A stretch of 64,000 bases of DNA from Heliocidaris erythrogramma (taxonomy: Eukaryota; Echinodermata; Echinoidea; Camarodonta; Echinometridae). The number at the start of each line of letters is the position of its first letter. Positions within the stretch are counted from its first letter, which is position 1. The notes beneath the pieces are model-generated. The model did no database searches, was not told the origin of the DNA, and saw only the letters and a list, made by a program, of their open reading frames with translations. Below, in pieces: positions 1 to 52,600 of the stretch. The stretch is taken from assembly GCA_025617745.1 (NCBI GenBank), contig CM046853.1:64427024-64491023 (forward strand). Reading direction: 5' to 3'. The position numbers and the translations under genes were made by a program.

Positions 1-269
1 CGCGGCGACCAGGAAATGTACACAATGACTCCGATAGCTCGTTTCGCGAGAATCAACAGTAAATTACGGATTTCATTTTTGGAAATATCTTTTCCAACAT
101 TGGTGAGTTGAATTTATTGTATTTCTTGGATATTTTGGGGTCGGTTTTTGAAAATTAAATGCCGATTTTGAGTGAATATTGGTGACTTTTGTGCAGTGGT
201 GTTTTAAAAAGATGAGGTGTATGACTGCCTACATTATACACACGAAGTATAGGAATGTAGCTATGAGTG
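1..269 (-). mobile_element. hAT-like MITE family A, left part, reversed, cut by the window edge
   Basis: Reverse-oriented left part of family A, ending in GCTATGAGTG and followed by the octamer CTTCCTGT (270-277). The remainder lies before base 1. It is nearly identical to 1946-2214. Confidence 0.75.
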
Positions 270-435
270 CTTCCTGTCACACCACGAATAGTGGTCATAT
301 TGACCACTACGAATACAATATGCAAAAATAGTTGGTATTTTCTGTCGCGTGTAGTAAAGGTATGGGGGGGAAAATAAGATAAATATTTTAAATACCTTGC
401 TTTCAAATTCAGCCCTTAAAAATCTCACTCCTACC

Positions 436-1945: not shown

Positions 1946-2379
1946 GCGGCGACCAGGAAATGTACACAATGACTCCGATAGCTCGTTTCGCGAGAATCAA
2001 CAGTAAATTACGGATTTCATTTTTGGAAATATCTTTTCCAACATTGGTGAGTTGAATTTATTGTATTTCTTGGATATTTTGGGGTCGGTTTTTGAAAATT
2101 AAATGCCGATTTTGAGTGAATATTGGTGACTTTTGTGCAGTGGTGTTTTAAAAAGATGAGGTGTATGACTGCCTACATTATACACACGAAGTATAGGAAT
2201 GTAGCTATGAGTGCTTCCTGACACACCACGAATAGTGGTCATATTGACCACTACGAATACAATATGCAAAAATAGTTGATATTTTCTGTCGCGTGTAGTA
2301 AAGGTATGGGGGGAAAAATAAGATAAATATTTTAAATACTTGCTTTCAAATTCAGGCCTTAAAAATCTCACTCCTACCC
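1946..2379. repeat. Duplicated block of A-left and B-left sequence
   Basis: Repeats bases 1-435 with few differences: reversed A-left half to about 2214, an octamer CTTCCTGA, then B-left sequence up to CTCCTACC. Spacing of the two copies is about 1,945 bp. The following A-left sequence (2380-2646) also matches 436 onward. Confidence 0.7.
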
Positions 2380-2646
2380 ACTCATAGCTACATTCCTATA
2401 CTTCGTGTGTATAATTTAGGCAGTCATACACCTCAACTTTTTAAAACACCACTGCACAAAAGTCACAAACATTCACTCAAAATCGGCATTTAATTTACAA
2501 AAACCGACCACTAAATATCCAAGAAATACAATAAATTCAACTCACCAATGTTGGAAAAGATATTTCCAAAAATGAAATCCGTAATTTACTGTTGATTCTC
2601 GCGAAACGAGCTATCGGAGTCATTGTGTACATTTCCTGGTCGCCGC

Positions 2647-3337
2647 CACTCACGGGTACATTCCTGTAAAATAGTTGGTATTTTCTGTCGCATGTACTAA
2701 AGGTATGGGGGGGAAAATAAGATAAATATTTTAAATACTTGCTTTCAAATTCAGCCCTTAAAAATCTCACTCCTACCTCAAATGGCCGTTAGGAAGAACT
2801 TTTGATATTTACAGCAAAATCCAAAGTCAAAATCTTGTCCAAAACCGGAGAAATCCCCGCCGATTTGTTTCGCGATCGCGTGTTGTTTACAAACTGCCGA
2901 TGTCTTAGACTAAAATCGGCCAATATAATTTTTGTCCACAAAGAAACTCGGGATCGCAAGGGCACATCGATCTTCACGATCGCGCACACAGAAAATCGGC
3001 ACTTTTCCGTGTACGCCATAGGGACCGAATTTTTGAGGACAAAACTCTTTTGGGGAGATGTCAGCGCCCGCGGCGACCAGGAAATGTACACAATGACTCC
3101 GATAGCTCGTTTCGCGAGAATCAACAGTAAATTGCGGATTTCATTTTTGTAAATATCTTTTCCAACATTGGTGAGTTGAATTTATTGTATTTCTTGGATA
3201 TTTTGTGGTCGGTTTTTGAAAATTAAATGCCGATTTTGAGTGAATATTGGTGACTTTTGTGCAGTGGTGTTTTAAAAAGATGAGGTGTATGACTGCCTAC
3301 ATTATACACACGAAGTATAGGAATGTAGCTATGAGTG
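2647..3337 (-). mobile_element. Intact 691-bp family A element nested in another A element
   Basis: From CACTCACGGGTACATTCC to GCTATGAGTG, in reverse orientation, flanked by perfect 8-bp repeats GTCGCCGC (2639-2646 and 3338-3345). The host A element continues on each side: left half about 2380-2646, right half 3338-3769. The length equals the copy at 38349-39039. Terminal repeats are short and imperfect (CACTCxxxGGTACATT). The 110-residue open frames inside are not treated as genes. Confidence 0.85.
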
Positions 3338-3777
3338 GTCGCCGCGGGCGCTGACATCTCCCCAAAAGAGTTTTGTCCTCAAAAATTCGGTCCCTATGGC
3401 GTACACGGAAAAGTTCTGATTTTCTGTGTGCGCGATCGTAAAGATCGATGTGCGCTTGCGATCCCGAGTTTCTTCGTGGACAAAAATTATATTGGCCGAT
3501 TTTAGTCTAAGACATCGGCAGTTTGTAAACAACACGCGATCGCGAAACAAATCGGCGGGGATTTCTCCGGTTTTGGACAAGATTTTGACTTTGGATTTTG
3601 CTGAAAATATCAAAAGTTCTTCCTAACGGCCATTTGAGGTAGGAGTGAGATTTTTAAGGGCTGAATTTGAAAGCAAGTATTTAAAATATTTATCTTATTT
3701 TTCCCCCCCATACCTTTAGTACATGCGACAGAAAATACCAATTATTTTGCAGTAATGTAGCGTTGAGTGCTCCTACC

Positions 3778-4586
3778 CACTCATAGGTACACGCCATTGC
3801 CGACTGTGTAGTAACGCAGCCAACACACATCCCATACCTAAACTGCATCACTGTGCATTTTTGGCTATATTTAATTGAAACTCATATATTGCAGTTTACT
3901 TAAATCCAAATACTTATGTTGAATAATAGATGATTAAAACTTACCAGGTTGTTTTGTGACCTTTGAAGAGGGTTTCCTGAAATTTTGGGTCCTTTTTGTC
4001 GATAACTGCTATCGAGACTGTCCCGTCAGCATCCAGTTTGTATTTTTCACGATTATGATGAAGGGAGCCCTCAGCGCTCGTAGTAGTACCGGCGCGATCG
4101 GTTCGTCGATCTCCTACGAAGACCTGGAAGGGCCAAACTGACGACGTAAAAAAATAAAAAATATTACGTACGTACGTAATAATTACTACGGACGTACGTA
4201 ATATTTTTTATTTTTTTACGTCGTCAGTTTGGCCCTTCCAGGTCTTCGTAGAATAGCTTGTGTGCGTAACATTCTGCGTACGTATCTACGGTGCGTAACC
4301 ATGTAGAGCGGCCTCACTAGTGCGCAACATATTGAGAGCAGTCGTCATCCGTATGGAGGTGTGGGTAACAAGTACCAAAAAGAGGGCTTTAAATGTAAGT
4401 TTTTATAACTTTCTACATTTTGTATCTTAACGAACTGATAACTTAAAATCTAAAGAATGATACTTAAGTATCAGTTTGCCCACAAAAACCTCCATTTCAA
4501 ACAAAATTACATCTGTATCCCCAATACCCAGTATACACACATGTATATGATCCTAATGGTCAATATGACCATTGCTTGCTGATGTG
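3778..4586 (+). mobile_element. hAT-like MITE family C, copy 2
   Basis: 809 bp, about 95 percent like copy 1 by eye, with the same central palindrome (near 4110-4250). Left flank is CTCCTACC, right flank GTTAGGAA (the complement of the copy 1 target TTCCTAAC), so the flanks do not match and one junction has been rearranged. Confidence 0.8.
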
Positions 4587-5108
4587 GTTAGGAAGAACTT
4601 TTGATATTTTCAGCAAAATCCAAAACCGGAGAAATCCCCGCCGATTTGTTTCGCGATCGCGCGTTGTTTACATACTGCCGATGTCTTAGACTAAAATCGG
4701 CCAATAAAATTTTTGTCCACGAAAAAACTCGGGATCGCAAGCGCACATCGATCTTTACGATCGCGCACACAGAAAATCGGGACTTTTCCGTGTATGCCAC
4801 AGGGACCGAATTTTTAAGGACAAAACTCTTTTGGGGAGATGTCAGCGCCCGCGGCGACCAGGAAATGTACACAATGACTCCGATCAACAGTAAATTACGG
4901 ATTTGATTTTTGGAAATATCTTTTCCAACATCGGTGAGTTGAATTTATTGTATTTCTTGGATATTTTGTTGTCGGTTTTTGTAAACTAAATGCCGATTTT
5001 GAGTGAATGTTTGTGACTTTTGTGCAGTGGTGTTTTAAAAAGTTGAGGTGTATGACTGCCTAAATTATACACACGAAGTATAGGAATGTAGCTATGAGTG
5101 CTTCCTGT

Positions 5109-5950
5109 GCTGTGCTGTAGATTCAGATATGATTGAAACAAACATTTTATTCTAAATCTAATGACACTGACAATCAATACATCACAGTTAGACTGGTAAA
5201 CAGTTGTGCGAGTGTTGACATATGACTTTTCAGACAATATTTGTTGATTTGCCTGTTTGCAGACTGGAATATTAGTATTAGAATCAAAATGAAAATGGTA
5301 ACATATTAAAATGTTATTCTGATGGAACTTAAGACTTTTAAGTCTAGGATTAGGAAAACATGATGCATGTGAAAGAGATCCTTTCCCTTTTTTTTGGTCA
5401 TATTTTAGCCCCGGGACGCTGCCACGAAGTGGCAGCGTCCTGAGTGAAACCAGTACGATTCGGTGGGTCTCACAATTTACCAATGTTCAAATGACCATTG
5501 AAAATATGGCCATATAAGTTATTTTTTTTAATTAAAGTATCATATATACGATGCCACTTACCTAAACAGACCTTCCGCAAATCAGCTTTTCCTAAAAAAT
5601 GTGTAGAATCGATGAATGTCACTTTTTACTCTCAATTTTCGAAACCAGTCCCATTCGCCATGTTGTTGAAGCAGAAGCGAAAATAGGCACTTGCGCATGC
5701 GCCTATGAATATTTATTACGACGGCATAGTTTTCGTCACAGGAATAATGAATATTCATATATCCACTGTGATCCGGCGATCTCTATTCGCTCGAGCTCCT
5801 GCCTGCCACTCGTCCTAATGAATATTCATAATGCTCCCTTCTTGTCTGACGCATGCGCATTGCAAGCAAAACACCGACCTACGGAAGTTTTTAGTACAGG
5901 CTTTTGGAGATAAATAGGCCTTTTTTGTATCATCCTCATTGAAAAGAAAG
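5109..5950 (+). promoter_or_regulatory. Probable NDUFAF3 promoter with paired NRF1-type palindromes
   Basis: Unique, locally CpG-containing sequence just upstream of the proposed NDUFAF3 exon 1. It holds TGCGCATGCGC at 5692-5702 and CGCATGCGCA at 5850-5859, both matching the NRF1 core palindrome (the sea urchin homologue is P3A2). Two copies of the 12-bp palindrome ATGAATATTCAT lie at 5747-5758 and 5818-5829. NRF1 is a known activator of nuclear genes for mitochondrial proteins, which suits a complex I assembly factor. No TATA box is obvious. Site function and transcription start are inference. Confidence 0.5.
5414..5440. repeat. Perfect 12-bp hairpin upstream of NDUFAF3
   Basis: GGACGCTGCCAC (5414-5425), loop GAA, GTGGCAGCGTCC (5429-5440). 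Perfect inverted repeat of unknown role; not part of the element families around it. Confidence 0.8.
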
Positions 5951-8900
5951 ATGACAGTCAATCGTAAAGTATTGTAAGTACCTAAAGTAGCCTAAAATCA
6001 AATAATGTCATGTTTCATGGCTATCATTTTGACAAACGACCTTGTAATTAAGAGACATCCAAGCAATCAAAGGACTGCTGATCGCAGCCCGAACACTACG
6101 TGTTCGGGCTGCCGCAGTAAGTCATATTTATGCTTTTCCCTTTTGTTTTTTAAAAAGAAAGTAGGCTAGATCTAGACCACTCATAGGTACACGCCATTGC
6201 CGACTGTGTAGTAATGCAGGCAATAGTGAGTACGGTACTAATATGTATCACTGTGCATTTTTGGCTATATTTAAGTGAAACCCATATCTTGGAGTTTACT
6301 TAAATATAACTAATTATGGTGAATAATAGATGATTAAAACTTACCAGTTTGTTTTGTGACCTTTGAAGAGGGTTTCCTGAAATTTTGGGTCCTTTTTTTC
6401 GATAACACCTATCGAGACCCGTCAGAGCATCCATTTAGTATTTTTCACGATTATGCTGAAGGGAGCCCTCAGCGCTCGTAGTGGTACCGGCGCGATCGGT
6501 TCGTCGATCTCCTACGAAGACCTGGAAGGGCCAAACTGACGACGTAAAAAAATAAAAAATATTACGTACGTACGTAATAATACTATGTACGTACGTACGT
6601 AATAATTACTACGTACGTACGTAATAATTACTACGTACGTACGTAATAATAATACGTACGTACGTAGTAATTATCACGTACGTACGTAGTATTTAATACG
6701 TAGGTACGTAGTATTATTACGTACGTACGTAATATTTTTTATTTTTTTACGTCGTCAGTTTGGCCCTTCCAGGTCTTCGTAGAATAGCTTGTGTGCGTAA
6801 CATTCTGCATACGTATCTATGGTGCGTAACCATGTAGAGCGGCCTCACTAGTGCGCAACATATTGAGAGCAGTCGTCATACGTATCGATGTCTGTGTAAC
6901 AACTACCAAAAACAAGGCTGTAAATGTAAGTTTTTACATTTTGTGTCTTAACGAACTTGTAAATTCATATGTATAGACTGATACCTAAGTATCAGTTTGC
7001 CCACAAAAACCTCCATTTCAAACAAAATTACATCTGTATCCCCAATACCCAGTATACACACATGTATATGATCCTAATGGTCAATATGACCATTGCTTGC
7101 TGATGTGATCTAGACTAATAAAACTAGGAACGAATGACAGGACTTGACATACTAGAGTAGACTAGAGAGAAGAAAGAGAAAGGGAGGCGTGAGATAGACT
7201 AGTCTACAAGGAAAAATTAAGTAAACTCTAGTAGGGTTAATTCAGATTAATTTAGTTTAAGTGAGCCAGCAGGTTAATTCCATGGTAACGGAAGGACATT
7301 TAGATACAGTTTGTGATTGTCCTTTCGTTACTGTGGAATTGACCAGCAGCCATTGTCATGATTGTAGAGATGCTGGAGAGAACTTTTGGCACCTTTTCTT
7401 ATAATTTGTTCAGTATTCTTGGCATAAACAAAAGTAATAATAGGTCTGATAATAATAATAATGAGGGGGGATAAAACTAAAGGAAGAAAATTGGAAGAAA
7501 TTGAATCTAAATTTCTTGCTGGCTAAGAAAGATTGATGTGAAACCAAAGTCTTTTTTTTTTACTCATGGGAGAGGGAGGGTTGCAATGACACTCAAACAT
7601 TGTAAATGAAACTTCATGTGTAAGTGATGATAATATTTGAGAACTTTTCTTAGAATCAATTAAGTTAGTTTTTTTTTCTTTAAATAGCATTTACAGGCTT
7701 GTCACAAAACTTGTCAGCACTTACAAACTGCTGAAAATCATCTATTACTGGAGTCGTAGATAGATCCTCAGTCTCATTCGGGGTAACTCCCTATCATATA
7801 AATATCTATTATCTCATGTGCAGGTTAGTGAACACAACTTCAAGATGCATGGGCAAGCTTCAACCGACTGATGATGAATTCTACACTAGAACAACAATCA
7901 GTCTCCTTTCCAAAGAGTCCTCAGACGTCCCCTTCATATCAAACTACAGCGTCCAAGGTTTCACCATCAGCGGAGACAAGGTCTATGGGCCTGTAGCCAT
8001 CTTGCCTAGGAGTATGGTGTCATGGAATGTAAGTAAAACAGTGAAAATTGAGAATGATATTTTGAAGTATATACAGGGTATGAAAAAAAAAAATTAAATA
8101 AAAACCTACTGAAAAGGCTTAACATTAACAGGGGCCCAGTGTACATGGGCTCTTTTGCTTTTGTTATAACTGTGATTTAATTACAGCCATGGAAAAAATT
8201 ATTAGACCAAGAATGGTTACTGATAGTGTTATTTTTGTGGTAAGAAGGAAATGAAATATCATAAAAACAAGGTGAAATTGCTGGAATTTGGTATTCATTC
8301 AATGAAATACAAAGAAAAATCATTTTTTTATATTTTGTTTGCATATTATAGTACCTTTATTACAGAAGCTTGGTCTAATAATTTTTTCCAGGGCTGTATA
8401 TATGGGCAACACTTACCTTTACCCTTTCTGTAGTTGAATAGCACAAGAATAAATGAATATAGAGCAAAATATTTCACATCTTTCCCCCCCCCCCAAGTGT
8501 TATAAATAATTCATGCAGCTGTCTGAAATTTGTAAGAAGACACTGGAATATGTGATGATTCATATTAGTGTGTTGTGTGAAAATTACTGATTTGGAAACT
8601 TCATTATTTGGCAAAATGTTTTTTTTTAATAAATATATATCAATTCAAATTTGAAAATATTTTTGAAGTATTATTTGAAGTAATGACACAAAATTAACTC
8701 AAGGAAGATTTATACCCATCAACTTTAATAGTGTGCAAGATTTGTATGAGTTGTAATCTCTAATCCTTTATCAATTGAGGTCGCCATCGACATCAAACAA
8801 ATCGCTTATGATGATGGTCTCCTGCGTTCACTATCCTGTTAATTGTAAAATATTACTTTCCCATATTGTATACATATTTTCTTTGTAATGAAGAAGTAAA

Positions 8901-15616: not shown

Positions 15617-18600
15617 GGGGGCATCTCGTTTTTCCGAAGGTTCGTTTTTCCGAAGGTTCGTATTTCCGAAGGTTCGTATTTCCGAAACACTAATTTCCCA
15701 TGCCTGGGGGTTCATAATTCCGAAAATGAAAAAGGGTTCGTAATTCCGAACATTTGTTGCATTATTCCGAAGGTTCGTTATTCCGAAGGTTCGTTTATCC
15801 GAAGGTTCGTTTATCCGAAGGTTCATAATTCCGAAAATGAAATAGGGTTCATATTTCCGAAGGTTCGTATTTCCGAAAATGAAAAAGGGTTCATAATTCC
15901 GAAGGTTCGTATTTCCGAAAATGAAAAAGGGTTCGTATTTCCGAAAATGAAAAAGGGTTCGTATTTCCGAAAATAAAATAAGGTTCGTATTTCCGAAAAT
16001 GAAAAAGGGTTCGTATTTCCGAAAATGAAATAGGGTTCGTATTTCCGAAAATGAAATAAGGTTCGTATTTCCGAAAATGAAATAAGGTTCGTATTTCCGA
16101 AAATGAAATAGGGTTCGTATTTCCGAAAAATGAAATAGGGTTCATAATTCCTGTTAAAAAAAGGCGAATTCATCAGGAGCAGAGGTGTAGCAACGGGGGG
16201 GGGGGGAGGGCACGCCCCCACCCCTCCCTCATCGGATGGTGAAAAAAAGAAAGAAAATGGAATAGGAAAGAAGATGGTTGGACCCCTTCCGGCAACCCCC
16301 AACCCTCTTCCACCAGCGGCTTCTTAGATTAGCTTTAAGATTATTCCAAAAGACTTGTGCCTCCAATGGTGCCAGTGCTCCCACAATGCCTAGACTCTAG
16401 CTACGCCACTGTTAACGGGAAACTTTAGGGTAACGATAGGATATTATGGTTTTAATTGCCATCTTTAAAAAGCGGATCTCTTTTCGACGAAAAGCACCTC
16501 CCCCACCCCCGCAATGAATAAAAAAATAAAATGGAAACTGGAAACGCGAAGGTTGGGGTTTGATCCCTGTTACGGCACCTATGGCCTTTTTGTTGTAAAA
16601 AATTTACGAGCGCGCGAAGCTAGCGACCAAAAATAATTGTGCCATTCCGTTGTGAAGAATCATAAAAATAACGTATTTCGGCATATAATGACTGGAATAT
16701 GAGGATATTCGGGCACCTCACTCACTGAATATGAGGTGTGAGTTGCCGGAATATCTGCACTTTCAAAATCCGGGGGGGGGGGGTTGGCTGCAGCAGCCCC
16801 CTTCTCGTACGCCTATGCCTAGGCCTATGTTAAGTACACAGTTGCGATTGATTTTAACTTGCGATTGTTTCAAATAAATCGCTTCAACTCCTTATAAGGC
16901 GGGGCACTGGTTGATAAAAGCCATTAATTTAGGTCAGAATGTTTTCTTCTCCATGTGTAATTCCTTATTTCTATTTTTTACGATGAGGATTGTTTTACTC
17001 TCAATGTTTTTTAGTGTTTTGTAACGGTTAAAAACGCAGACTGTGCAGTAAAATGAAGCAACTCATTAGAATCTGTACAAATTTATTATGCTGTAAGCAG
17101 CTGTATAAAATGAAAGATTTTCATCCATGTTTAGAAATGATGGCATTTTGGCAAAGTTAAAGAACATGTTCAATGATTTTAATCTATTTATGCGGCATAG
17201 ATAGTTAGGATTATTCCCTGTATGATAATTATTTTAGCCCGACTGAAAGAAAACTTAACATTTTGATCCACTATTCTTCAAATTTGGTTGTATGTTGCTT
17301 TTAATCATTATCATTATATTCAATTAGCGATTGCACCTGACCTATATACTTACACATAATATGCCAGTATAAAGAGTTATTTTTATTCTTCAGATGCGGT
17401 GTGCTACATAGCAGTGGCTTTAACATTTTTGTTATTGCTCACTTGTTATCTTTCTTTTCTTGAATTTGGTTTTCTTAAGAAGTAGCTGCTGCACGGCTTT
17501 TGTAAAGTTCTGTTGGAATTGTAAAGTGTTTGAAAACTATCTGCGTCATAGATCATTTCTGATATGCGGCAAACAAAATGCTGTATAGTTGTGTAAGCAA
17601 GGTCATTACTTACAGCATACTATGCTGCATTTACCTCTACAATTTAAGATTTTAATGTGTTTTAAGAAATGTTAATATTTTTGCAAGGTTATAAAACATG
17701 CTCAATGATTTCAGTCTGCCCTGCTGCATAAATTGTTTGAGATATTTTGCATTATAGTTTGGTTTTACTTTTGTTTCCTTTTATGATAATCATATCAGCC
17801 TGATGATAAGACTCCTTCTTTAACTTGTTACGATCCATCTTTCTTCGGCTTTGGTTGTTTATGGTATCTATTCATTTATTTTTTTTTTTTTTAATCACAA
17901 TTTATGTTGAATGTTGACGAAGTAATTACATCTTACATGTCTTAAAGATAATAAAGTGTCAATGTTTGGCTCGCTGGAATCCAGCAGCGTGGTTCCCGAA
18001 AATCCTTTTATTTTGGGAAGCGAGATGGTCGGCTATCCTTATCTGTGGGCGGGAAGGTACTCAAAATGTTATCGTTGTTTGGATTATCTGGTAACAAAAT
18101 CATTGTTCTATATACAATATCTCTATTTTTTTACTTGCTCACTAGCGCGTAAGATTTAGAAACGGAATAGTTTGGGACAGGGAACGCCCTTCATTAGGGC
18201 GAGTGAAGTGCCCAAATATTCCATATTCGGCAGCAGTTAAGTAATATTATTCATGGCTCATTATTACATGTTTTCTGAATTTATAACCATTTTTCATTTT
18301 CGGAAATACGAACCCTTTTTCATTTTCGGAAATACGAACCCTTTTTCATTTTCGGAAATACGAACCCTATTTCATTTTCGGAAATACGAACCCTTTTTCA
18401 TTTTCGGAAATACGAACCCTTTTTCATTTTCGGAAATACGAACCCTATTTCATTTTCGGAAATACGAACCCTTTTTCATTTTCGGAAATACGAACCCTTT
18501 TTCATTTTCGGAAATACGAACCTCATTTCATTTTCGGAAATACGAACCTTCGGAATTATGAACCCTATTTCATTTTCGGAAAAAAGAACCTTCGGAAAAA

Positions 18601-18722
18601 CGAACCTTCGGAAAAACGAACCTTCGGAGTAACGAACCTTCGGAATAACGAACCTTCGGAATTATGAACCTTCGGAAAAACGAACCTTCGGAAATACGAA
18701 CCTTCGGAGAAACGACATGTAA
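15617..18722. mobile_element. 3.1-kb foldback element with inverted minisatellite arms
   Basis: Two arrays of the same short repeat lie in opposite orientation: 15630-16150 (units around TTCGTATTTCCGAAAATG) and 18288-18716 (CATTTTCGGAAATACGAA). Outer units are 16 bp (CCTTCGGAAAAACGAA type), inner units 26 bp. The outer ends match imperfectly in inverted orientation (GCATCTCGTTTTTCCGAAGG against ACATGTCGTTTCTCCGAAGG). Both sides carry CCGGTATGAC (15607-15616 and 18723-18732), a likely target duplication. The 2.1-kb middle has no gene. The design recalls sea urchin TU foldback transposons, whose arms are tandem short repeats; family identity is inference. Confidence 0.7.
16180..16411. mobile_element. 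Possible hAT-type MITE inside the foldback element
   Basis: Left end CAGAGGTGTAGCAACGGGG and right end CTAGCTACGCCACTG are imperfect inverted matches of the CAGTGGCGTAGC type found in many invertebrate MITEs. No clean target duplication seen. Confidence 0.4.
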
Positions 18723-24500: not shown

Positions 24501-27500
24501 TAACCCTAACCCTAAAACCCGATTGCAACCCTAATCCTAACCCTAAACCTAACCCTTAACCTGACCTAAAACCCGATTGCAACCCTAATCCTAACCCTAA
24601 ACCTGACCTAAAACCCGATTGCAACCCTAATCCTAACCCTAAACCTGACCTAAAACCAAACCTGACCTAAAACCCGATTGCAACCCTAATCCTAACCCTA
24701 AACCTGACCTAAAACCAAACCTGACCTAAAACCCGATTGCAACCCTAATCCTAACCCTAAACCTGACCTAAAACCCGATTGCAACCCTAATCCTAACCCT
24801 AAACCTGACCTAAAACCCGATTGCAACCCTAATCCTAACCCTAAACCTGACCTAATACCCGATTGCAACCCTAATCCTAACCCTAAACCTGACCTAAAAC
24901 CCAACTGCAACCCTAATCCTAACCCTCTATCTTTGATGAAATAAAGCCTAGAGAAAATTCGCTGCAGCAAATGTCTGCTCACCTATAGATAAAAGAGGTC
25001 AAAATGGCTCACCTTTGTCCAGAATGGAATGAATGTAAGCAGAGTGATAGCGATCTTTTCTATGATAACGATGATGATGAAGACACCGCACTGCCCGATC
25101 CAGGCGTCCCACTTGGGAGGGTCCCCATACTCTCCAAACCTCAGTGACTTACAGGCACACCTTATAACAATCTTCTGGGCTATTCTCACTTGAAGGTAGA
25201 TGAAGAAGAGTCCGGCTGTGGAGTCCAGTAAGAAGTATATCACATACCTGCAGTATGATGATGGGGTAAATATGAGAACAAGAACATAACTAGAGCACTC
25301 GGAGGGGGGACCAGTCCGAGTACATGTATCCCCCGAACCCATCACCCATCTCTTATTTGAATCAATGTTGTGACTGAAATGAATAAAGTGGCAATTTGGG
25401 ACCTCGGGTATCACTGCTGACAAAAATGACCTTTTTGTACTTTAGTTATTTTTTAGTTGTTTTGCAATTGAAGGTGATCCGACAAAATCTGCAGCCGGTA
25501 GAGCGCTCACAAGAAAGTCTTTACTATTTCTTTTAAAAATATGGTTACCATGGCAACAATGTTGACTCCGCCCACACCAAAAACAACCGGCGTCTTCATC
25601 TTACCATAATGCACCTCCATGAGAAATTTGAAGGTGATCCGACAAGAACTGCAGCCGGTAGAGCGCTCACAAGAAAATCTTTACCACTTCTTTAAAAAAT
25701 ATGGTAACCATGACAACAACGTCGACTCCGCCCACACCAAAAACAACAGGTGTCTTCATCTTACCATAATGCACCTCCATGCAAAATTTGAAGGTGATCT
25801 GACAAGAATTGCAGCCGGTAGAGTGCTCACAAGAAAATCTTCACCATTTCTTTAAAAATATGGTTACCATGGCAACCATGGCTCCGCCCACACCAAAAAC
25901 AATAGGCTTCTTCATCTAACCATAATGGACCTCCATACTGTGAAATTTGAAGGTGATCGGACAAAAACTGCAGCCAGTAGAGCGCTCACAAGAAAATCTC
26001 TGCGGCGCGACGATGCCAAATCCATAGTATACATAGGGATACAATAATTATATTATATAGCACATTACATACAAGACTGCACACAATGTACATTAATCTA
26101 GCAAGAGCTTAATAATTGCTTTGGCAGGGATTTTCTTGCACCTTCACATACACACGGTAGATAGAGATAGAGGCAAAAGCTATTTGCTATTCTGACATAT
26201 ATTCAAACAAATATCTTTATTTTATATGAAATCATGAAAATATGAGATAAAATATATTAACATTGATTCGAAAAAGTGCAATGGAATAATGTCGGACAAT
26301 CATTGATAGAGGAGATATTTAATTCATTGATCTAAATACATGTACAACCTTATAAAGCTACAGGGCTCTGGGTAACTATGTTGTATGCATGTACTTTCAA
26401 TTTTGTGAGTAAAGGTAAAATATCCCTTTTCAAATGCATCAGTATTTGCTTGCACATGCATGGAACCAAAGTTGGACTTTGGTTCCATACACAGGGATTT
26501 TATCTTATTCTTTATTTTCATCATACATTTTAACTGTTCACCCATATAACACCGGATAAAGTGTCATGGAGTTGATTTTAGACGTACCAGCTGTACACAA
26601 GTTGTTTTTAGATAGCTGGTTCCCTTTAATATGACTGATATCTTACCAAGTACATGCATCGCCGCGTAATGAAATCATTGAAAGTAGGATGTTGATGACA
26701 TGGATCAGGCCAGCACCAAGAGCCTGCTTTGAAGTATCGAAAAACCTGCAAGAATACCAAATAAATCATTAAATTGGTATATGCTGTAAAAAATGTACCA
26801 TGTCATATGTTCTAAAGATTCTTAAAGTTCTGATCATTGAAAGTAGGATATTGAGGACATGGATCAGGCCAGCACCAAGAGCCTACTTGGAGGTATCGAA
26901 AAACCTGCAAGAATACCAAACAAATCATTAAATTGGTAATGTTGTAAAAAATATACATGTCATATGTTCTCCTAAAGATTCTTAAAGACAAAGTTCTGAT
27001 CATTGAAAGTAGGATATTGATGACATGGATCAGGCCAGCACCAAAAGCCTGCTTCGAGGTATCATAAAACCTGCAAGAATACCAAACAAATCATGAAATT
27101 GGCAATGTTGTATTTATAAAAATTATATCATGTCACATGCTCTCCTAAAGATTCTTTAAATTTTTTTATTCTTACTCAGTTATTCCATGAATTGGTCTAA
27201 AGACCAATAACTCTTTTGATAAACACACATTTAGTTGAATTGATAAGACCAAGCCTACAAATTTGCACTCCCACAACCCACTCTTTATATACAAACAGAC
27301 GAGTGTAAATACATTAGGAAGAATATAGGCTGTAATTCTTATGTAAAAAAGATAGACTTTGTTGGAATTTACGATCCCAATTTTTATGTCAAAAGCATGT
27401 ACAATAATCAAGTCGGAAGATTATGGACTGCTTTTATAATTAAAAGAAAAACAATATCAAATACTGTAGCTTACATCAACAAAATATGTATTACTAAATC

Positions 27501-37668: not shown

Positions 37669-40600
37669 ATGGTGCTTTTGTTGCTGCCACCAGCAATATC
37701 AGATGCAGATGAAACAGAAATATATGGCACCCTTACAGGTAAGTCCATTTTCGTTATTTCAAAATCAAAGGCAGAACTAATAAAGTAAAGACAAGTAAAA
37801 CTAAAGACATTGCAAGACTAAACTTCTAAAAGTTGTAAAGTCAGATAAGTAAATTAGTAAAAAATCATTGTCATTGACCTGATTGATGCATGCAGCCAGA
37901 ACTTTTCAGTTATGATGACTGATGTCATTGAAATTAAAATTTAAGAAAAGTGACTGAAAGTACTTCATTTTCCTTTTTTACTTTTAGCTTCACAGCAGTC
38001 TTGCAACTCTCTGAAAATCAAATCAATATTACGTACTCTACTTAACGGTCATGCAATGTTTTGCAGTGTTCAGGTGTTACTTAACATTTTGATAAAAAAA
38101 TGAAATTAAAATTTTGATGAATACTTAAATTAAAGTTTGATGAGAAATTAAATTGAAAACTTACTAGGGCCTAGTTGTCCCAACAACAAACCTGATGTTT
38201 TGTAACTTAGCTTGTCTTTTAATTTCTAATGTCATTTCAAGCTGCACAGTAATCATGGTAATTGAATTACCAGGTACAACAAACAAATTGCAGTGTTAAA
38301 CCTGGTTATGTGAACTAGTACAGTAGACATGATAGAGAAGGTCTATAGCACTCATAGGTACATTCCTATACTTCGTGTGTATAATGTAGGCAGTCATACA
38401 CCTCATCTTTTTAAAACACCACTGCACAAAAGTCACCAATATTCACTCAAAATCGGCATTTAATTTTCAAAAACCGACCCCAAAATATCCAAGAAATACA
38501 ATAAATTCAACTCACCAATGTTGGAAAAGATATTTACAAAAATGAAATCCGCAATTTACTGTTGATTCTCGCGAAACGAGCTATCGGAGTCATTGTGTAC
38601 ATTTCCTGGTCGCCGCGGGCGCTGACATCTCCCCAAAAGAGTTTTGTCCTCAAAAATTCGGTCCCTATGGCGTACACGGAAAAGTTCTGATTTTCTGTGT
38701 GCGCGATCGTAAAGATCGATGTGCCCTTGCGATCCCGAGTTTCTTCGTGGACAAAAATTATATTGGCCGATTTTAGTCTAAGACATCGGCAGTTTGTAAA
38801 CAACACGCGATCGCGAAACAAATCGGCGGGGATTTCTCCGGTTTTGGACAAGATTTTGACTTTGGATTTTGCTGTAAATATCAAAAGTTCTTCCTAACGG
38901 CCATTTGAGGTAGGAGTGAGATTTTTAAGGGCTGAATTTGAAAGCAAGTATTTAAAATATTTATCTTATTTTCCCCCCCATACCTTTAGTACATGCGACA
39001 GAAAATACCAACTATTTTACAGAAATGTACCCGGGAGTGGTCTATAGCACACCACGAATAGTGGTCATATTGACCACTACGAATACAAAATGCAAAAATA
39101 GTTTGTATTTTCTGTCGCGTGTAGTAAAGGTATGGGGGGAAAATAAGATAAATATTTTAAATACCTTGCTTTCAAATTCCGCCCTTAAAAATCTCACTCC
39201 TACCTCAAATGGCCGTTAGGAAGAACTTTTGATATTTTCAGCAAAATCCAAAGTCAAAATCTTGTCCAAAACCGGAGAAATCCCCGCCGATTTGTTTTGC
39301 GATCGTGTGTTGTTTACATACTGCCGATGTCTTAGACTAAAATCGGCCAATAAAATTTTTGTCCACGAAGAAACTCGGGATCGCAAGCGCACACCGATCT
39401 TTACGATCGCGCACACAGAAAATCGGGACTTTCCGTGTATGCCACATAGGGACCAAATTTTTAAGGACAAAACTCTTTTGGGGAGATGTCAGCGCCCGCG
39501 GCGACCAGGAAATGTACACAATGACTCCGATAGCTCGTTTCGCGAGAATCAACAGTAAATTACGGATTTGATTTTTGGAAATATCTTTTCCAACATCAGT
39601 GAGTTGAATTTATTGTATTTCTTGGATATTTAGTGGTCGGTTTTTGTAAATTAAATGCCGATTTTGAGTGAATGTTTGTGACTTTTGTGCAGTGGTGTTT
39701 TAAAAAGTTGAGGTGTATGACTGCCTACATTATACACACGAAGTATAGGAATGTAGCTATGAGTGGTCTATAGTTAGATTAAATTTTCCAACATGTATGT
39801 TTACATTGCAATGGCATAAATTCCTGGAGCTGCAGTTATCAATATTTCCTGGCCTTTTTTTTTATAAGCTCCAACCTCTGTCCAAATTGAGCCTGTTGGA
39901 CGATGGTTTGAAGCAAGGCTCCACAGGCAGCGCAATCACCTGTCGGTATCCTACACGGAATCATTGCCAAGTGATGACGATGAGGAGGAGTCAGCTGAGG
40001 AAGATCTCTATGATGAGGATGAAGATGATGCTATGCTCCAAACCTTGGATCCAAAGGAGTGGAAGGTATATCACTCTCAAAATAATTTGATGACCCCCCT
40101 GGAAAAAAAGAAATAGATCTAAATTTAAAAATATTTTAAACCTATTTTAACTTCAGAGTAGTTTACTTTGTCAGGACAACTTCAAAAGAGTCTTGAAAAA
40201 ATGAAATGGAAAAAAGGAAAAAGCCAAATAGGCCCTACATCTTTCTTGCCTAAACATTTTAGCAGTATCTAGTCTTTACAAACACTCATTCTTTGTTCCA
40301 TCATGTAATGATAATCATTTCCATCGAATTGAAATGTATCGGGGCAACTACTTCCCATAAATACATCCCTGAGGGGCATTTATCCATTGAATAATAATAA
40401 TTCTCCTGTAATTGTTTCATGGGTGGGGTGGGTCTGCCTGTCTGGTGCTAGTCAAGGGGTTGATTGTCATAGAATCTGGCAGGGACAGGGAACAAATGTG
40501 GAGGAAATATTATTTCTATGTGAAAAAAGCTTCACAATGCCCCTCCTTAAAAATAATCTGCCATTCTTGGTTCCAAACTATTTTTTTAGCAATTTCAGCT

Positions 40601-43600
40601 ATTTTCAGCTATATACAAGGGATATCGCTAAAGACATCTTCACATCGGCCACCCCAAAAACTAGATGTAGGCCTAACTCTTTTTTTATTTTGACTCTCTT
40701 CATAGAAGTTGAATGAGCCATATTTCAGATGATGTACTAAATAGAAATGTTAATTTCTTTTTTCTCTAACAGAATCATGATCACTATATAATATTGGGAC
40801 TCTCAAAACTGAGATACAAAGCAACACAGCATGACATCAAGAAAGCTCGTAAGTGGACTCAACGGAAACCTCAACCATTATTTCTGTGAAATAAAGAGAT
40901 TGCATTTTATTCAGGAATACAGTCATACCTACCACGAAAACGAAAAAATTATTATGATTCTTCAGTGAGCAATTAAAAAAGAAATTTAAAGATCACATTA
41001 CAAGAAAACTCCATCAAAGTAAATATTGGCTTAATACTTTTTATTGCATATATGGCATAAATTAAACAAGGTTATCGAAATTCAACGCTTGGAAACATTT
41101 GAAGTAATGATTATTATCAATTATAAAACGGTAAAATACAGCCCCCGATATAGCAGCTGAAGAGCTCCTCGAACGCTGCTGAGATGTGTGACGACACACC
41201 AGGGGCCAGTCCTGTCTAAGCAGACGATGTCCCATGACATCTTACACATTTTTCAGTGCCTGTTTTGTCATCTCCTCTTCACTTATTTCTCTTACTTGAC
41301 TAGCGTCAGTCTTAATGTTAGTCTGTTGCCTCACTCTTAACTTCGTGTATGGTATTATTTTGATGAAAAATGCAGCGTTAAAAAAATAAAGGAATCAGTC
41401 ACTTGTAAACAAAATAAGACGCCATTGTATTTTCAGCTGCTTGCACCGGGGCATGTTCGGCGTTTCAAGAGGGAACGAATACCATCCATGCTATTATTCG
41501 GAGGGCTTTTCAATTTGAAAATGGGGTTTATTTCATTGATCATTGACCCTTCTCCTGTGTATTTACAATCAAACGGTTTTAGTTATCAGAATCAGTTTCA
41601 CTTTCCCTTTTAGAATGGTGTGAAATAAGGTCATGTTAAATATACCAAACTCTTTATAATTTGATAAATAATTGCATTGCAATTACGTTCATTCATTATA
41701 GGACGTCGTCTGCTTAAGCAGGATCGATCCCTAGTGTGACGACATCAAAACATCGCTATATTTCTGGCGAATCCTCGGATATTCCAGATGCTTAGAAGAG
41801 CTTTTATTTATGTCGTTTTTATAATCATCAGATACGCAGTTGACATAAAACTTATACGATTGCCATCTGTAAGCTTCCCAGTTTCTAGTGATACATTAAT
41901 TGCCATATTTGTGATTTTCTTGTAATGTGGTCTTTAAGGAAAAACTATTCAAGACATTCAAGTAATTGATAATATGCAGAAAAAAATTTACCTTTATACT
42001 TATTTTCATATATAAATCAAGATGGTGTACTAAATAAAGAATTTTTATGCTTGTTAGCACATTGTCATTTTTCTGTTTTTGCTATAAAGACAAGCGAAAG
42101 GTTCTGAAGCATCATCCAGACAAAAGAGAAGACAGGAAGACCAGAGTACGGAAGGCTGGAGATGACGATTACTTCTCATGTATCACAAAAGGTGAGTCTT
42201 TTTTTATTTTGTCAGGTATCTAAAATTGTGTGAAACATGATTAGGTAATGGAATTTTTTGATGCTTTTATTTGGTTGATTCTCATATTCTATGCAATTAA
42301 TTGTTAAACTGTTATGATGATAATACTACATTTCATTTATAAAGTGCCGTTTCAAGAGACACAGAGCACATAAGTGCTAATTTCAAAGTCTTGACTTTTG
42401 GATAGTGACATGGTTTGTCTCCATCTTGGTTTGTCATTTGCTCAGGTGACATGTGTACTGGGCTTTATTTGTCAAACGTATAGGTTTAGAGTTAGGGTTG
42501 TAATTAGGTTTTAGGTTCAGGATTGGGGTTAGAGTTAGGTATAGTGTTTGGTGCAAGGTTGATGTAAGGATATTGGTTCGTGTTGGAAATTTTTCAGTGG
42601 AGCAGATGTCCCCGGAGCATGTGCTGAAAAACCATATTCTCAAATCTGGTTGACACTTGTCTGTGAAACCCCAAATTACAGTCTTACATTTACGCCTTTT
42701 TTTATCTTTACTCTAGCATATGAGATCCTTGGTAACCCAGTGAGAAGGCGAGCATTTGACAGTGTTGATCCCGAGTTTGATAATGACGTCCCTTCAAATA
42801 ACCAGCAGTCAAAAGACAAATTCTTTGAGACCTATACCAGTGTTTTTAAAAGAAATGCCAGGTGAGAACTGTATTTCATACAGGTCGATGCAATTATGCT
42901 ATATGCAAGAATGGTGGCTTCTTGTATAGCGCTCATGTCCGTCACGTTGTGACGCTCCTGGCACTTCATTATTACCCCGGTCATAGCTTATATTAGCAGC
43001 CAAATATGTAGCGCTCAAGCATATCGGGTACCCATATGCAAGAAATTGATGCAGTTTTATAGTATACAAATATATATACTGTCATGAGAGGGTCTGGTTG
43101 GAAATATGGTCCCAAGGTGACGTGAACCAAGACTATTTTCATGAGGGGCACAGCCCTAAAGGAAAATGGTAGTCTTCACATCACCAAGGATGCCATATTT
43201 TAACCAGAGACTCGAACTAAAGCCCAAATCTACTCATCTACTTAATTATGATCATCTGCACTGCAGGCCTATGGTAGACAGCACACTTACGTACACAAAC
43301 AATTTTGCAGAAGGGATGAATTTGGGTGGTTATCAAACGCGTAATAATGACATTATCCTGCGCCGGTGCCTAAAACAATAGATACGCGCAAATTAATGTC
43401 GTCACAATGTAGTACGCACTTTTCGTGTGTGATGTCATACGGCATAAATAGCATCCGTAAATAGCATCTGTGAATAGTACTACTATTCACAGATCGTGAT
43501 GACAGATGTTGCCCTCCATGGCAATTTGCTCATTTGCATGAGGCTAGTGGGAATTTTATTTTTGCACATGACGCACATTGGATCAATCAATTACGCAAAT

Positions 43601-46600: not shown

Positions 46601-49600
46601 TCTGTAGTACTTTGGTGATGTCTGGGAGCAAATATACTGTTTTAACCCATGGAATACTAAGCCCTAGATATCTCGGGCTGAAGTCTATGAGAAATGCATG
46701 TTATACCAATCTCAAATTGTACCCAACGGGTTAAAGGTCTTCGGGTTCTGAATTCCACTTATTTTTTTCAATGGGATGTCAGGGAACTTGTACTTACATG
46801 TATGACAGTTTCATGAAATGCTGCACTGAACTTTAAACCAGTATTATAAGATAGAAATAAAGAGTGAGAGAGAAAGAGTGTGTGTGTGTGTGTGTGTGTG
46901 TGTGAGCAAGAAATTTGAACATAATTCACTTTTGTAGAAGTAAACATGGTATTTTAATCTGATTGTGACTTATTAGGCACAAGCAGCCAAGAAAGAAAAA
47001 GAGGCACTCAAGAAGGCCATGAGGAAAGAGAGGAAAGCTTTGAGGGAAACCTGTAAGGTGAGTATATCAACCATAATCCTACATTATCAAACATCTACAA
47101 GCTGGGCGTCCATTACATCGTTTCACAATGGCATCAGGACTTAACTGACACTTCTTATTTCAATATACTCTTGTAAAGATGCGTATATCGTCCACATGCT
47201 CCGGTGACAATAAGCCAGTTCGTAATTATATGACCCTGAAATGACCCCAGTTTGTACCTGCTCACGCATTTGTTTTGATGGACGCGCTGCTTGTTTAACA
47301 TGTAAAATTATACCGTTGCGCGTACAAAATGACAGCGTAAAAGGTCAATTGTACTCAGTACAAATGACCTTTATCTGCACATGCGCAGATTGTAAATACA
47401 AACTGTCTTATTGCTCTACACTCAGTTTCGCATATGAAGTAAAAAGCTGTGATATCGGTTTGCTCTTTGTCTTGCTCTCATGATACAGAAACATGGTTAC
47501 TTCACTCATGAGGATGGCCTTGTGAAAGCGATGGAAGACATGGAGAGGTTGTGTGAAAGATTATCTCTGGTCAGGTAAATGGAATCTGTTATCATGAACA
47601 TTGTTCAAGAATGCTATCATAAGCTTTGTTCACACATCACTCATGGTAAACCATCTCTTTAAAAAAAAATGCAAAATTAACGGCATAGGTGTAATGCTGT
47701 GTGTGTGTAAATGAGTTTTGACAGACGTGTATCAATCAGATATGATTGTTTACGTCTGGGACCGACCTTTAATGTCACCATCTGAAAGACGTGACTGAGA
47801 TTCGAACCTGGGTCCAATCAGAGTCACTTTGTAGGCGAATACAAAGAGATGCCCATAGACATTACCGCAAGGCCCACTCCTGATCCCTGGTGTTCAAAAT
47901 CTTTGTTAGAAGGCACAGACTAGGATTACAGACTAGGCCCCCCCCCCCACCTCTACTTTGTTTTAATATTCCCATTTACATACAAGATGTTTTTTGTTGA
48001 GGTTGTCTCCTGCGTTGTATGTGAACGGGGCCAGAGGCGATCATATGATATCAAGTTGAGCTTTACTAAGTAACGCATGCATGTTTTGTAATCTATAGCA
48101 GTCTATATCACAATATAAAGGACCAAAAATTGAAATGTTCTCTTTGTTCCTAGTAAATAAGTTTTGTTTTAACAGTATTAAAGATTCTCTGAAAACATAC
48201 TTTTTCATGTAGGCATTATTGTATTCTTTATTTCAATTAGATTACAGGAGGTGAATGAGAGATTCAGCAAAGCCGACGAAGAACAATCGAAGACTGTATT
48301 TCAAGAAGAGGTACATAATTCAACATCCACTCTCTTGCTAATAGAGAACACAAGTATTTCGAGAGAAACCCTTTCACATGGAATGTTGTGTACCCAGCAA
48401 AAGGATGCAATCGTTTGTGAGGATGGTTGTACTTTTTTTTTAATAGCATCCCAATTTTTGACCATAATTTGAAGACATCTGCTCAACACATTTCAGTCCA
48501 TATATTGTCTAAATTGTTAAAAACAGTATTATAACTTCAGCAATCAAAACTGAATGAGAGATTCAGCAAAGCCGACGAAGAACAATTGAAGACCGTATTT
48601 CAAGAAGAAGTACATAATTCAATATCCACTCTCTTGCTAATAGAGAACACAAGTATTTCAAGAGAAACCCTTTCACATAAAATGTTGTGTTCCCAGCAAA
48701 AGGATGCAATCGTTTGTGAGGATGGATGTACATTTCTTTCTAAAAGCATCCCAATTTTTGACCATATTTTGAAGACATCTGCTCAACACATATCAGTCCA
48801 TACATTGTCTAAATTGTTAAAAACAGTATTATAACATCAGCAATCAAAACTAACAGTTTTGGAATTTTCTACCGCATTGACATCGATTAGTTGGTACTGG
48901 TATATTGGTACGATTTTCTTCACCATAGGATGAAAAATTGAGGTATCAGTATCACAATTCATTTTTACCAATACTTAAAAAGTCATAAATGATTACATCT
49001 CTTTCAGGTAGCTGCTCTAACAGCAGAGATTGAACGAGAGCACCAGGAGGAGCTTCGCAAACAGCAGGAGCTCCTCTCCAGCTCCAAGGGAGGGGATGGT
49101 GGTGGATCCAAGGGAGGTAAAGCTTGGAGCGAAGCTGATACACAGCTCCTCATCAAAGCAGCCAACATCTTTCCTCCAGGCACAAGCTCCAGGTATGTAC
49201 AGATGACAAGCATCTTCTACCCTAAATCCATTACCAGAAGTTTTTAGTGAGGAATTTTCAATTAAGAAGAAACTTAGCTGCTACCTACTTATCAGATATT
49301 TAATGTAGGATCTAGAAATGACCAAACATTACCCCGGGGTGCCAACTAAAAAGCATTATTAAAGATCACATTGCAAGAAAATTCCATCAAAATAAATATT
49401 GGCTTAATACTTATTATTGCATAGATGGCATAAATTATACAAGGTTATCCAAATTCAACGCTTGGAAACATTTGAATTAATGATTATTATCAATTATAAA
49501 ACGGTAAAATACAGCCCCCGATATAGCAGCTGAAGAGCTCCTTGAACGCTGCTGAGATGTGTGATGACACACGAAGGACCAGTCCTGTCTAAGCAGACGA

Positions 49601-52600
49601 TGTCCCATAACATCTTACACATTTTTCAGTGCCTGTTTTGTCATCTCCTCTTCACTTATTTCTCTTACTTGACTAGCGTCAGTCTTAATGTTAGTCTGTT
49701 GCCTCACTCTTAACTTTGTGTATGGTATTATTTTGATGAAAAATGCAGCGTTAAAAAAATAAAGGAATCAGTCACTTGTAAACAAAATAAGACGCCATTG
49801 TATTTTCAGCTGCTCGCACCGGGGCATGTTCGGCGTTTCAAGAGGGAACGAATACAATCTGTGATATTATTCGGAGGGCTTTTCAATTTGAAAATGGGGT
49901 TTATTTCATTGATCATTGACCCTTCTCCTGTGTATTTACAATAAAACGGTTTTAGTTATCAGAATCAGTTTCACTTTCCCTTTTAGAATGGTGTGAAATA
50001 AGGTCATGTTAAATATACCAAACTCTTTATAATTTGATAAATAATTGCATTGCAATTACGTTCATTCATTATAGGACGTCGTCTGCTTAAGCAGGATCGA
50101 TCCCTAGTGTGACGACATCAAAACATCGCTATATTTCTGGCGAATCCTCGGATATTCCAGATGCTTAGAAGAGCTTTTAGTTATGTTGTTTTTATAATCA
50201 TCAGATACGCAGTTGACATAAAACTTATACGATTGCCATCTGTAAGCTTCCCAGTTTCTAGTGATACATTAATTGCCATATTTGTGATTTTCTTGCAATG
50301 TGATCTTTAAAACTTAGTTTTCTTTTGATGCTGTACCCTGGGTTACAAAAAGGGGGGAATTGCAGGATGCATAATACAAGTTCAAATGAGCACACTTTGC
50401 GAAATATTTGTTGATTAGATCTATATTGCAGCTGCAAAGACAGTAATCTAACAACAATCTTCTACCAAAATGCCTTGTAACCTCTTGATAAAAACTGTTG
50501 ATGACTGTCATATGTCATTATTTGTCTTTGTTTGTGATGGGTTTATGTTTTGTTATTAGGTATGAAGTGATGGCAAACTACATTAGCAGTCATTCCACAT
50601 CGGGTATCAACAGAGGAGCCAAGGATATCATCAATAAAACCAAGAATCTACAAAAACTAGGTTAGTACTCCCACCATCTCCCTGATTATCTCTGTTGGCA
50701 AATCCATGATTGGTGTCAGCAAGTTTTCTTATTTGCAATTTGGGTCCACCCACCCTCCGCCCAAAAAAGTCTGTTGACAAATCCATGCTTGGTGTCAGCA
50801 AGTTGGTATTTTGCTCATTGGCAAATTTGGGTACACCTACTCCCTCAAAATCTTTTGGCAAATCTTCATAATTTTTGTCAAATAGTTTGTATTATGCTGA
50901 TTGGAACAGTCAGGTTCACCCCCCCCCCCCACAAAATAATGAAAATAACCTGTTGGCAAATATCCATGATTAGTGTCAGCTAGTTTGTATTTTGTTTATT
51001 GACAAATTTGGTCCATCCCCCCAAAAATAGTTGTTGGATTATTTGTGTAGGAAAGTTCTTCACACAGTATTCCGTATTGATGATCAGGGCACCCAACATC
51101 ATCACCATTTCATTGACATGTCATAGTGATACCTTCATGAACTAGGCTGCCAGTGAAGAAGCCCTTTCTGAAGTTCTTGTTTCTTATGATCTAAGAGACT
51201 GGTTTTGGTCCATTTATTCAATACTGCTAATCAGGGAAACTCACATCATCACCACTTTCATGACTTGTCAATGTGTTTTCATCTTCTTCACCATACACCT
51301 CTATGCAGCAGGCTGTGAATGAGAATGCCTAAAAGTTGAGAACCATTTCTGCAAAAGACTGGTTCCTATCATATATCAAATATTACATATACACCTCCAT
51401 GCAGCAGGCTGTGAATGAGAATGCCTAAAAGTTGAGAACCATTTCTGCAAAAGACTGGTTCCTATCATATATCAAATATTACATATCCGAGCAGTTACAC
51501 ACCTTCATTACTTAATTGATTTGTAATTGTGTTACCATTCTATTCATCAGATGCTGGCATGAAGCAAGCAGCCAATGAGAAAGCCTTTGAGAAATTCCAG
51601 CAGGCAACAGGAGGAAAGCTCAAGAAAGCTGATGAAGCTCACCCTTCAGAGAAATATGAAGGTAAGGAAGCAAATAAGTGTCTTTGCTTTTAGACCAATG
51701 GTATTTTCAAGCCATATCCCTCCTGTCAGTTTGTTTCACCCATACAAAATTTGGTGTGGTTGATGGTTTATTTTACCTCACTGCTCAGTAAACTCTGTAT
51801 GCCTGTAAGTTAACAACCAGGGACGTACAGCTTTAAGTCCTATTTGAGGGACTTGGTTATGAAGATTAATGCCAAGCGTATCGACTTGGTTTCAAACTGG
51901 GACCTCCTGGTTACGAGACTTCTGATCTACCATTAAAACAATTTGGCACGTAAAGAACAAATGAGGTCAATCCCATTTTTCAGAACTTTTGTACATTAAA
52001 GAAGAATAAACTGTGGACAACATAACCTGATGATCTAATGCACATTTATGAGCTGTCACGTTTGAATATAAAAAATAGAATTTATTGTTGTAAACAGAAT
52101 GATTGTCATTGGCAAATAATTACATTCCAAGTTTTCAATGATACTTTTAAGTTCAGATGACAATTGAATAAGGTAGTAAATTTGCACTGTTCTTGCTTCA
52201 GGTGGAGAGGGTGCCGCTGCTGCCTCCGCTGCTGCTGCTGCTGCTGCAGAAGGTCCTAAAGCATGGACTACGGAGGAGCAGAAGAGATTAGAACAAGCCT
52301 TGAAGACATTCCCTGCCAGTGCTGCAGATAGATGGGATAAGATAGCTGAAGCCGTACCTACTAGGACTAAGAAAGAATGCATGAAGAGATATAAGGTATC
52401 TAATTTATTATCATTCTTTTCTTCTTTGGCTCTTCTCCTTCTTCATCAGATTCTTCTTTTTTTGTATGCTTCTTCTTTGTCTTTTTCAGTTGCTACTTTT
52501 TCTTCTTTGTTTTCTTCTTTTATTTTTCATCTTCTTCTACTGGTCATCCTACTTCTTCTTTTCCTTTTTTCCTCTTCTTCTTTCTTGTGTGCCATCTCTT

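What the first reader, a model, noticed from the sequence alone, without database searches (positions are those of the whole stretch)
48252..48850. Tandem duplication gave DNAJC2 a new in-frame exon with a newly made 3' splice site
Seen: two 299-300 bp units. The second copy of exon 12 lost its own start but is now preceded by intron sequence ending AACTTCAG, which puts an AG in phase 0 before 23 open codons and the intact GTACAT donor. The original exon 12 goes from phase 2 to 0 and the new one from 0 to 0, so adding it keeps the frame. The human protein aligns without it. This would lengthen the charged helix that spans ribosomal contacts in zuotin.
Basis: partly seen in the sequence, partly recalled or inferred. 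Interest (0 to 1): 0.75.

Follow-up and report, generated by a model that had tools for sequence, protein, structure and literature searches.

The report
Partial exon duplication in DNAJC2 intron
A 300-base stretch holding most of one exon of the animal gene DNAJC2 was copied next to itself; the copy could in principle be read in frame, but its splice signals are poor, so it is probably an ordinary leftover rather than a new working exon.

Summary
Exon 12 of a DNAJC2 (zuotin) gene, minus its first 11 bases, and 240 bases of intron are tandemly duplicated (48252-48550, 48551-48850; 16 mismatches, 1 gap). The candidate exon 48541-48609 is open, phase 0 to 0, and would add 23 residues. That it is a new exon is only partly supported. 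The donor is not fully intact: its -1 G is now A (GAA|GTACAT) and +5 is A. None of 15 inferred donors of this gene lacks both, and it scores below all 15. The acceptor is mediocre but within the range of real ones. The exon copy is not better conserved than the intron copy (3 of 59 versus 13 of 240 differences). The structural claim is wrong: exon 12 lies in the four-helix bundle, not in the charged middle-domain helix. In-frame acceptors arise readily in simulated duplications (6 to 24 percent). Best reading: a probably neutral tandem duplication with little or no inclusion. No RNA, relative or whole assembly could be examined.

The parts
48241..48310 (+). exon 12 of the DNAJC2 gene (70 nt, phase 2 to 0); acceptor TTTCAATTAG, donor GAG|GTACAT
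   Evidence: frame continuity with exons 11 and 13 and alignment without a gap in this part to human DNAJC2 chain 6cgh_A
48252..48550 (+). unit 1 of the tandem duplication (299 bp: last 59 nt of exon 12 plus 240 nt of intron 12)
48551..48850 (+). unit 2 of the tandem duplication (300 bp)
48541..48609 (+). candidate exon 12b: 10 nt of intron-derived sequence plus the 59-nt exon copy; 23 open codons, phase 0 to 0
   Evidence: translation across E11-E12-12b-E13 is open; no transcript evidence
48525..48540 (+). two candidate acceptor AGs (48525-48526 and 48539-48540); use of the upstream AG puts a TGA in frame
48607..48615 (+). candidate 12b donor GAA|GTACAT, lacking both -1G and +5G
49008..49192 (+). 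exon 13 of DNAJC2

Best explanation
A partial tandem duplication (unit about 300 bp, 1-nt microhomology at the junction) inside DNAJC2 copied the last 59 nt of exon 12 and the following 240 nt of intron into intron 12. Exon 12 kept its own acceptor and the better donor and still splices to exon 13. The second exon copy has only a borrowed intronic AG and a weakened donor. It most likely lies in the intron as a decaying exon copy, skipped in nearly all transcripts and at most included at a low level, adding 23 residues to the four-helix bundle. Shown: the duplication, frames, phases and site sequences. Inferred: exon borders, skipping, neutrality and relative youth.
For: 12b donor score -3.22 (matrix without exon 12) against 1.96 to 10.94 for 15 real donors, each left out of training in turn. 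U1 pairing -3.1 kcal/mol against -5.4 to -12.6 for the 15, and 0 of 15 lack both -1G and +5G. No yTnAy branch-like motif 13-60 nt upstream of the 12b AG (13 of 15 real acceptors have one), and another AG nearer upstream than in any of the 15 real acceptors. Exon copies diverge as much as intron copies, 3/59 versus 13/240, Fisher p = 1.0. Chance makes such frames often: of 60,000 simulated duplications in this gene, 6.1% gave an in-frame open AG scoring at least as well, and the nearest AG was in frame and open in 23.8%. Other short tandem duplications lie in the same window, e.g. 51293-51486, 26674-27159, 25468-25999.
Against: The frame is open and in phase. The acceptor score (3.64) exceeds 5 of 15 real acceptors, and it outscores the competing AG upstream (0.78). 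Its pyrimidine count (9 of 21) is above that of one real acceptor (E7, 8 of 21), 2 of 15 real acceptors also lack yTnAy, and the looser nTrAn motif occurs 21 and 29 nt upstream of 12b. Exon 12 itself appears to splice with the weakest of the 15 donors, so this gene may tolerate weak sites. With exon 12 in the training set the 12b donor scores 0.86. Two of the three exon differences are synonymous. Site scores rest on 15 homology-derived sites of one gene.
Confidence: 0.7

Rival explanations
1. 12b is a real cassette exon, constitutive or regulated, that adds 23 residues repeating the exon 12 part of the four-helix bundle.
For: Phase 0 to 0 and 23 open codons; acceptor within the range of real sites; two of three differences synonymous. 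[quoted passage not shown]
Against: Donor below all 15 real donors; a competing AG 14 nt upstream gives a stop; no excess of conservation.
Confidence: 0.18
2. The second unit is an assembly artefact: two diverged haplotypes of a heterozygous animal written one after the other.
For: About 5.6% divergence including one indel is of the size that could separate alleles in very heterozygous invertebrates (recalled, not tested). The window's own assembly could not be searched.
Against: No N in the window; the boundary is a clean junction with unique flanks on both sides; several other short tandem duplications, 84 to 99% identical in the three named above, lie in the window.
Confidence: 0.1
3. 12b acts as a decoy whose use makes transcripts with premature stops and so lowers DNAJC2 output.
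For: The upstream AG gives a TGA in frame, and skipping exon 12 in favour of 12b also gives stops.
Against: No sign of conservation or of a strong site; nothing beyond the reading frames supports it.
Confidence: 0.02

Closest known systems
Tandem exon duplication, including unannotated copies in introns (Ivanov and Pervouchine 2022, PMC9013439; abstract and Results section read)
   Same: A second copy of exon sequence lies next to the first inside its gene, found by sequence similarity, and needs RNA-seq to show use.
   Different: Here only the 3' part of the exon was copied, its own acceptor was lost, and mutually exclusive use would break the frame.
Tandem genomic duplication as a source of introns (review PMC3443670, passages seen)
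   Same: Tandem duplication with use of latent splice sites in the duplicated region, adding nucleotides to the coding sequence ('imprecise' gain).
   Different: The known route duplicates an exonic AGGT; here the duplication spans an exon-intron border and the would-be acceptor is intronic. No gain is demonstrated.
Human DNAJC2/MPP11 isoform 2 (PMC6519820, passages seen)
   Same: Splice variation in the same protein segment, ending at the residue that matches the exon 12/13 border.
   Different: Human isoform 2 removes the segment; 12b would repeat part of it.

Membership tests
DNAJC2/zuotin gene | zuotin homology domain, RAC head and SANT/Myb domain in order | tested here: met
   Pfam ZUO1-like_ZHD 127.5 bits, RAC_head 62.2, Myb_DNA-binding 51.1, all above cut-off, on the joined E6-E17 translation
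DNAJC2/zuotin gene | J domain with HPD upstream | tested here: inconclusive
   LKHHPDKR is read in exon 4; the J domain was not scored with a profile
Tandem duplication of exon sequence (partial copy) | head-to-tail copies of exon sequence with flanking intron | tested here: met
   94.4% over 301 aligned columns
Whole-exon tandem duplication | second copy carries the complete exon and both of its splice sites | tested here: not met
   the original acceptor and the first 11 exon bases are missing from the copy; donor has A at -1
New functional exon | included in mature mRNA | not testable with these tools
   no transcript data
New functional exon | usable donor and acceptor | tested here: inconclusive
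   acceptor within range of real sites, donor below all 15
New functional exon | selective constraint on the copy | tested here: inconclusive
   3/59 against 13/240, too few changes
Mutually exclusive exon pair | either exon alone keeps the frame | tested here: not met
   12b without exon 12 gives stops

The most novel reading that the evidence does not exclude
A young cassette exon caught at birth: a tandem duplication cut off an exon's acceptor, an intronic AG replaced it in the right phase, and DNAJC2 now makes some protein with a 23-residue repeat in its four-helix bundle, within the segment that human isoform 2 removes.
Probability: 0.15. Interest if true: 0.45.

Novelty: new member of a known kind. 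Interest (0 to 1): 0.2.

Why it matters
If 12b were spliced in, it would be a clear example of how a partial duplication can recruit an intronic AG and lengthen a conserved ribosome-associated chaperone without breaking its frame. If it is skipped, as seems likelier, it is a useful warning that an in-frame open exon copy arises readily by chance and that the donor must be read on its exonic side too.

Tried and rejected
'Lengthens the charged helix' was rejected: exon 12 maps to the four-helix bundle. Mutually exclusive use of 12 and 12b was rejected for frame reasons. A repeated origin of the unit was rejected within the window: only the two copies match; the whole genome was not searched. 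The 99-codon open frame 48535-48831 through unit 2 has no Pfam match and is not taken as a gene. Rfam (gathering thresholds) and tRNA scans of the window gave nothing. A look for other genes scanned 10 ORFs against Pfam: one match above its cut-off (STIMATE); the others, DUF498, ADNP_N and seven families on one ORF, were below theirs; six of the ten ORFs had no match; no further gene model was built, so the splice matrices rest on DNAJC2 alone. A search of solved structures with one of these ORFs gave nothing. A first count of 14 intronic differences was wrong; it is 13 plus one indel. The species was not identified. No structure was predicted: the spliced protein is not one contiguous reading of the window, and I did not submit it.

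Full report
What is there. The gene is a DNAJC2/zuotin orthologue on the + strand. I placed 15 introns, between E2 and E17, by frame continuity; exon 1 and the start of E2 were not placed, and no transcript was available, so all exon borders are inferred. The joined translation of E6 to E17 (441 aa) carries the zuotin homology domain, RAC head and a Myb/SANT domain and matches PDB chains named zuotin and human DNAJC2 (DnaJ homolog subfamily C member 2). Exon 12 is 48241-48310 and ends in phase 0. The conceptual protein aligns to 6cgh_A without a gap through exon 12 into exon 13; the only gap is one residue in exon 11.

The duplication. Two units, 48252-48550 and 48551-48850, are head to tail. 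They differ at 16 positions and one 1-base indel: 3 of 59 in the exon part (48288, S to L; 48295 and 48310, synonymous) and 13 of 240 in the intron part. The junction has 1 nt of shared sequence. The unit has no other match in the window. Several other short tandem duplications lie in this window, so the event fits a common local mutation type. An assembly artefact cannot be excluded: the search of the window's assembly did not complete.

Could 12b be an exon? The frame is right: 69 nt, open, 23 residues inserted between FQEE and VAAL. Of the routes that I translated, only exon 12 plus 12b from the AG at 48539-48540 keeps the frame; 12b in place of exon 12, use of the AG at 48525-48526, and retention between the two all give stops. 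The acceptor scores 3.64 on a matrix from the gene's 15 acceptors. Those score -0.99 to 9.87 when left out in turn (5 of 15 below 3.64), and 59 of 554 intronic AGs, itself counted, reach 3.64; the competing AG upstream scores 0.78. It has 9 of 21 pyrimidines (real ones 8 to 17) and no yTnAy motif 13 to 60 nt upstream, as in 2 of 15 real acceptors; the looser nTrAn occurs at 29 and 21 nt. So the acceptor is poor but possible.

The donor is the main objection. Exon 12 already has the lowest-scoring of the 15 donors (GAG|GTACAT, 1.96). The copy is GAA|GTACAT and scores -3.22 on a matrix without exon 12; on the matrix with exon 12 it scores 0.86, and 161 of 655 intronic GTs, itself counted, do as well or better. 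Four of 15 donors lack +5G and one lacks -1G; none lacks both. Predicted pairing with U1 is -3.1 kcal/mol against -5.4 to -12.6. The matrix is small, so these are rankings, not splicing measurements. If exon 12's donor is the ancestral form, the change in 12b is a loss, as expected of an unused copy; without an outgroup this polarity is inference.

How surprising is the frame? In 60,000 simulated duplications starting inside an exon and ending in the next intron of this gene, the nearest AG was in frame and open in 23.8%, the best-scoring AG in 18.8%, and an in-frame open AG at least as good as that of 12b occurred in 6.1%. Since only about four new codons must be open and the rest is a fairly recent exon copy, the in-frame reading is not strong evidence of selection. 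The exon copies have not diverged less than the intron copies (Fisher p = 1.0). With only 3 changes the test has little power; constraint on both copies is weakly disfavoured (P of 3 or more = 0.046 under a rough model that frees a quarter of the sites, an assumption).

What would it do to the protein? The four-helix-bundle paper (PMC6519820, passages) puts the middle domain at human residues 279-345 and the bundle from 346 on, with helix I as the part that contacts the 40S subunit in S. cerevisiae. With chain residue 3 of 6cgh_A taken as human 346 (87 residues of the fragment in an 89-residue chain, my inference), exon 11 begins opposite human 362 and exon 12 ends opposite 414. 12b would therefore repeat a part of the bundle, by position helix III and the start of helix IV (inference), and not lengthen the charged middle helix. 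The same paper says human isoform 2 lacks codons 362-414, which is exactly the homologue of exons 11 plus 12 (156 nt here; 159 nt in human by those residue numbers), and substantially rescues zuo1-deleted yeast on paromomycin. So the segment can vary without destroying function in that assay, which keeps the cassette reading alive.

Verdict. The duplication is real and well described; the new exon is possible but not the likeliest reading. Tandem exon duplication and use of latent sites after tandem duplication are known processes (a section and passages). No title or start of abstract listed by my searches (lists capped) named a duplicated DNAJC2 exon, but only three papers were opened: the bundle paper and two general ones. 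That is not proof of absence from print.

Noticed in passing
40976-41937 and 49348-50310: Two 97% identical copies of a repeat of about 960 bp in introns 3 and 13 of DNAJC2, with inverted ends TTAAAGATCACATT.. or TTAAAGACCACATT..; looks like a non-autonomous DNA transposon, perhaps with TTAA target sites (inference).
   Followed up: partly
1-7110 and 38347-39768: A mosaic of direct and inverted repeats of about 110 to 820 bp, 89 to 99% identical, within the window's left end and shared with the region before DNAJC2.
   Followed up: no
15626-16151 and 18261-18719: Arrays of 16/26/42-bp units (GGTTCGTATTTCCGAA...) in opposite orientation, about 2 kb apart.
   Followed up: no
24986-25441 (- strand): ORF matching the STIMATE family (Pfam, 67.9 bits).
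   Followed up: no
47489-47574 and 48241-48310: Exons 11 and 12 together (156 nt) are in frame and match exactly the segment missing from human DNAJC2 isoform 2, so the same two-exon skip is possible here.
   Followed up: partly
48535-48831: Unit 2 is open for 99 codons right through the donor and the intron copy; no Pfam match.
   Followed up: partly
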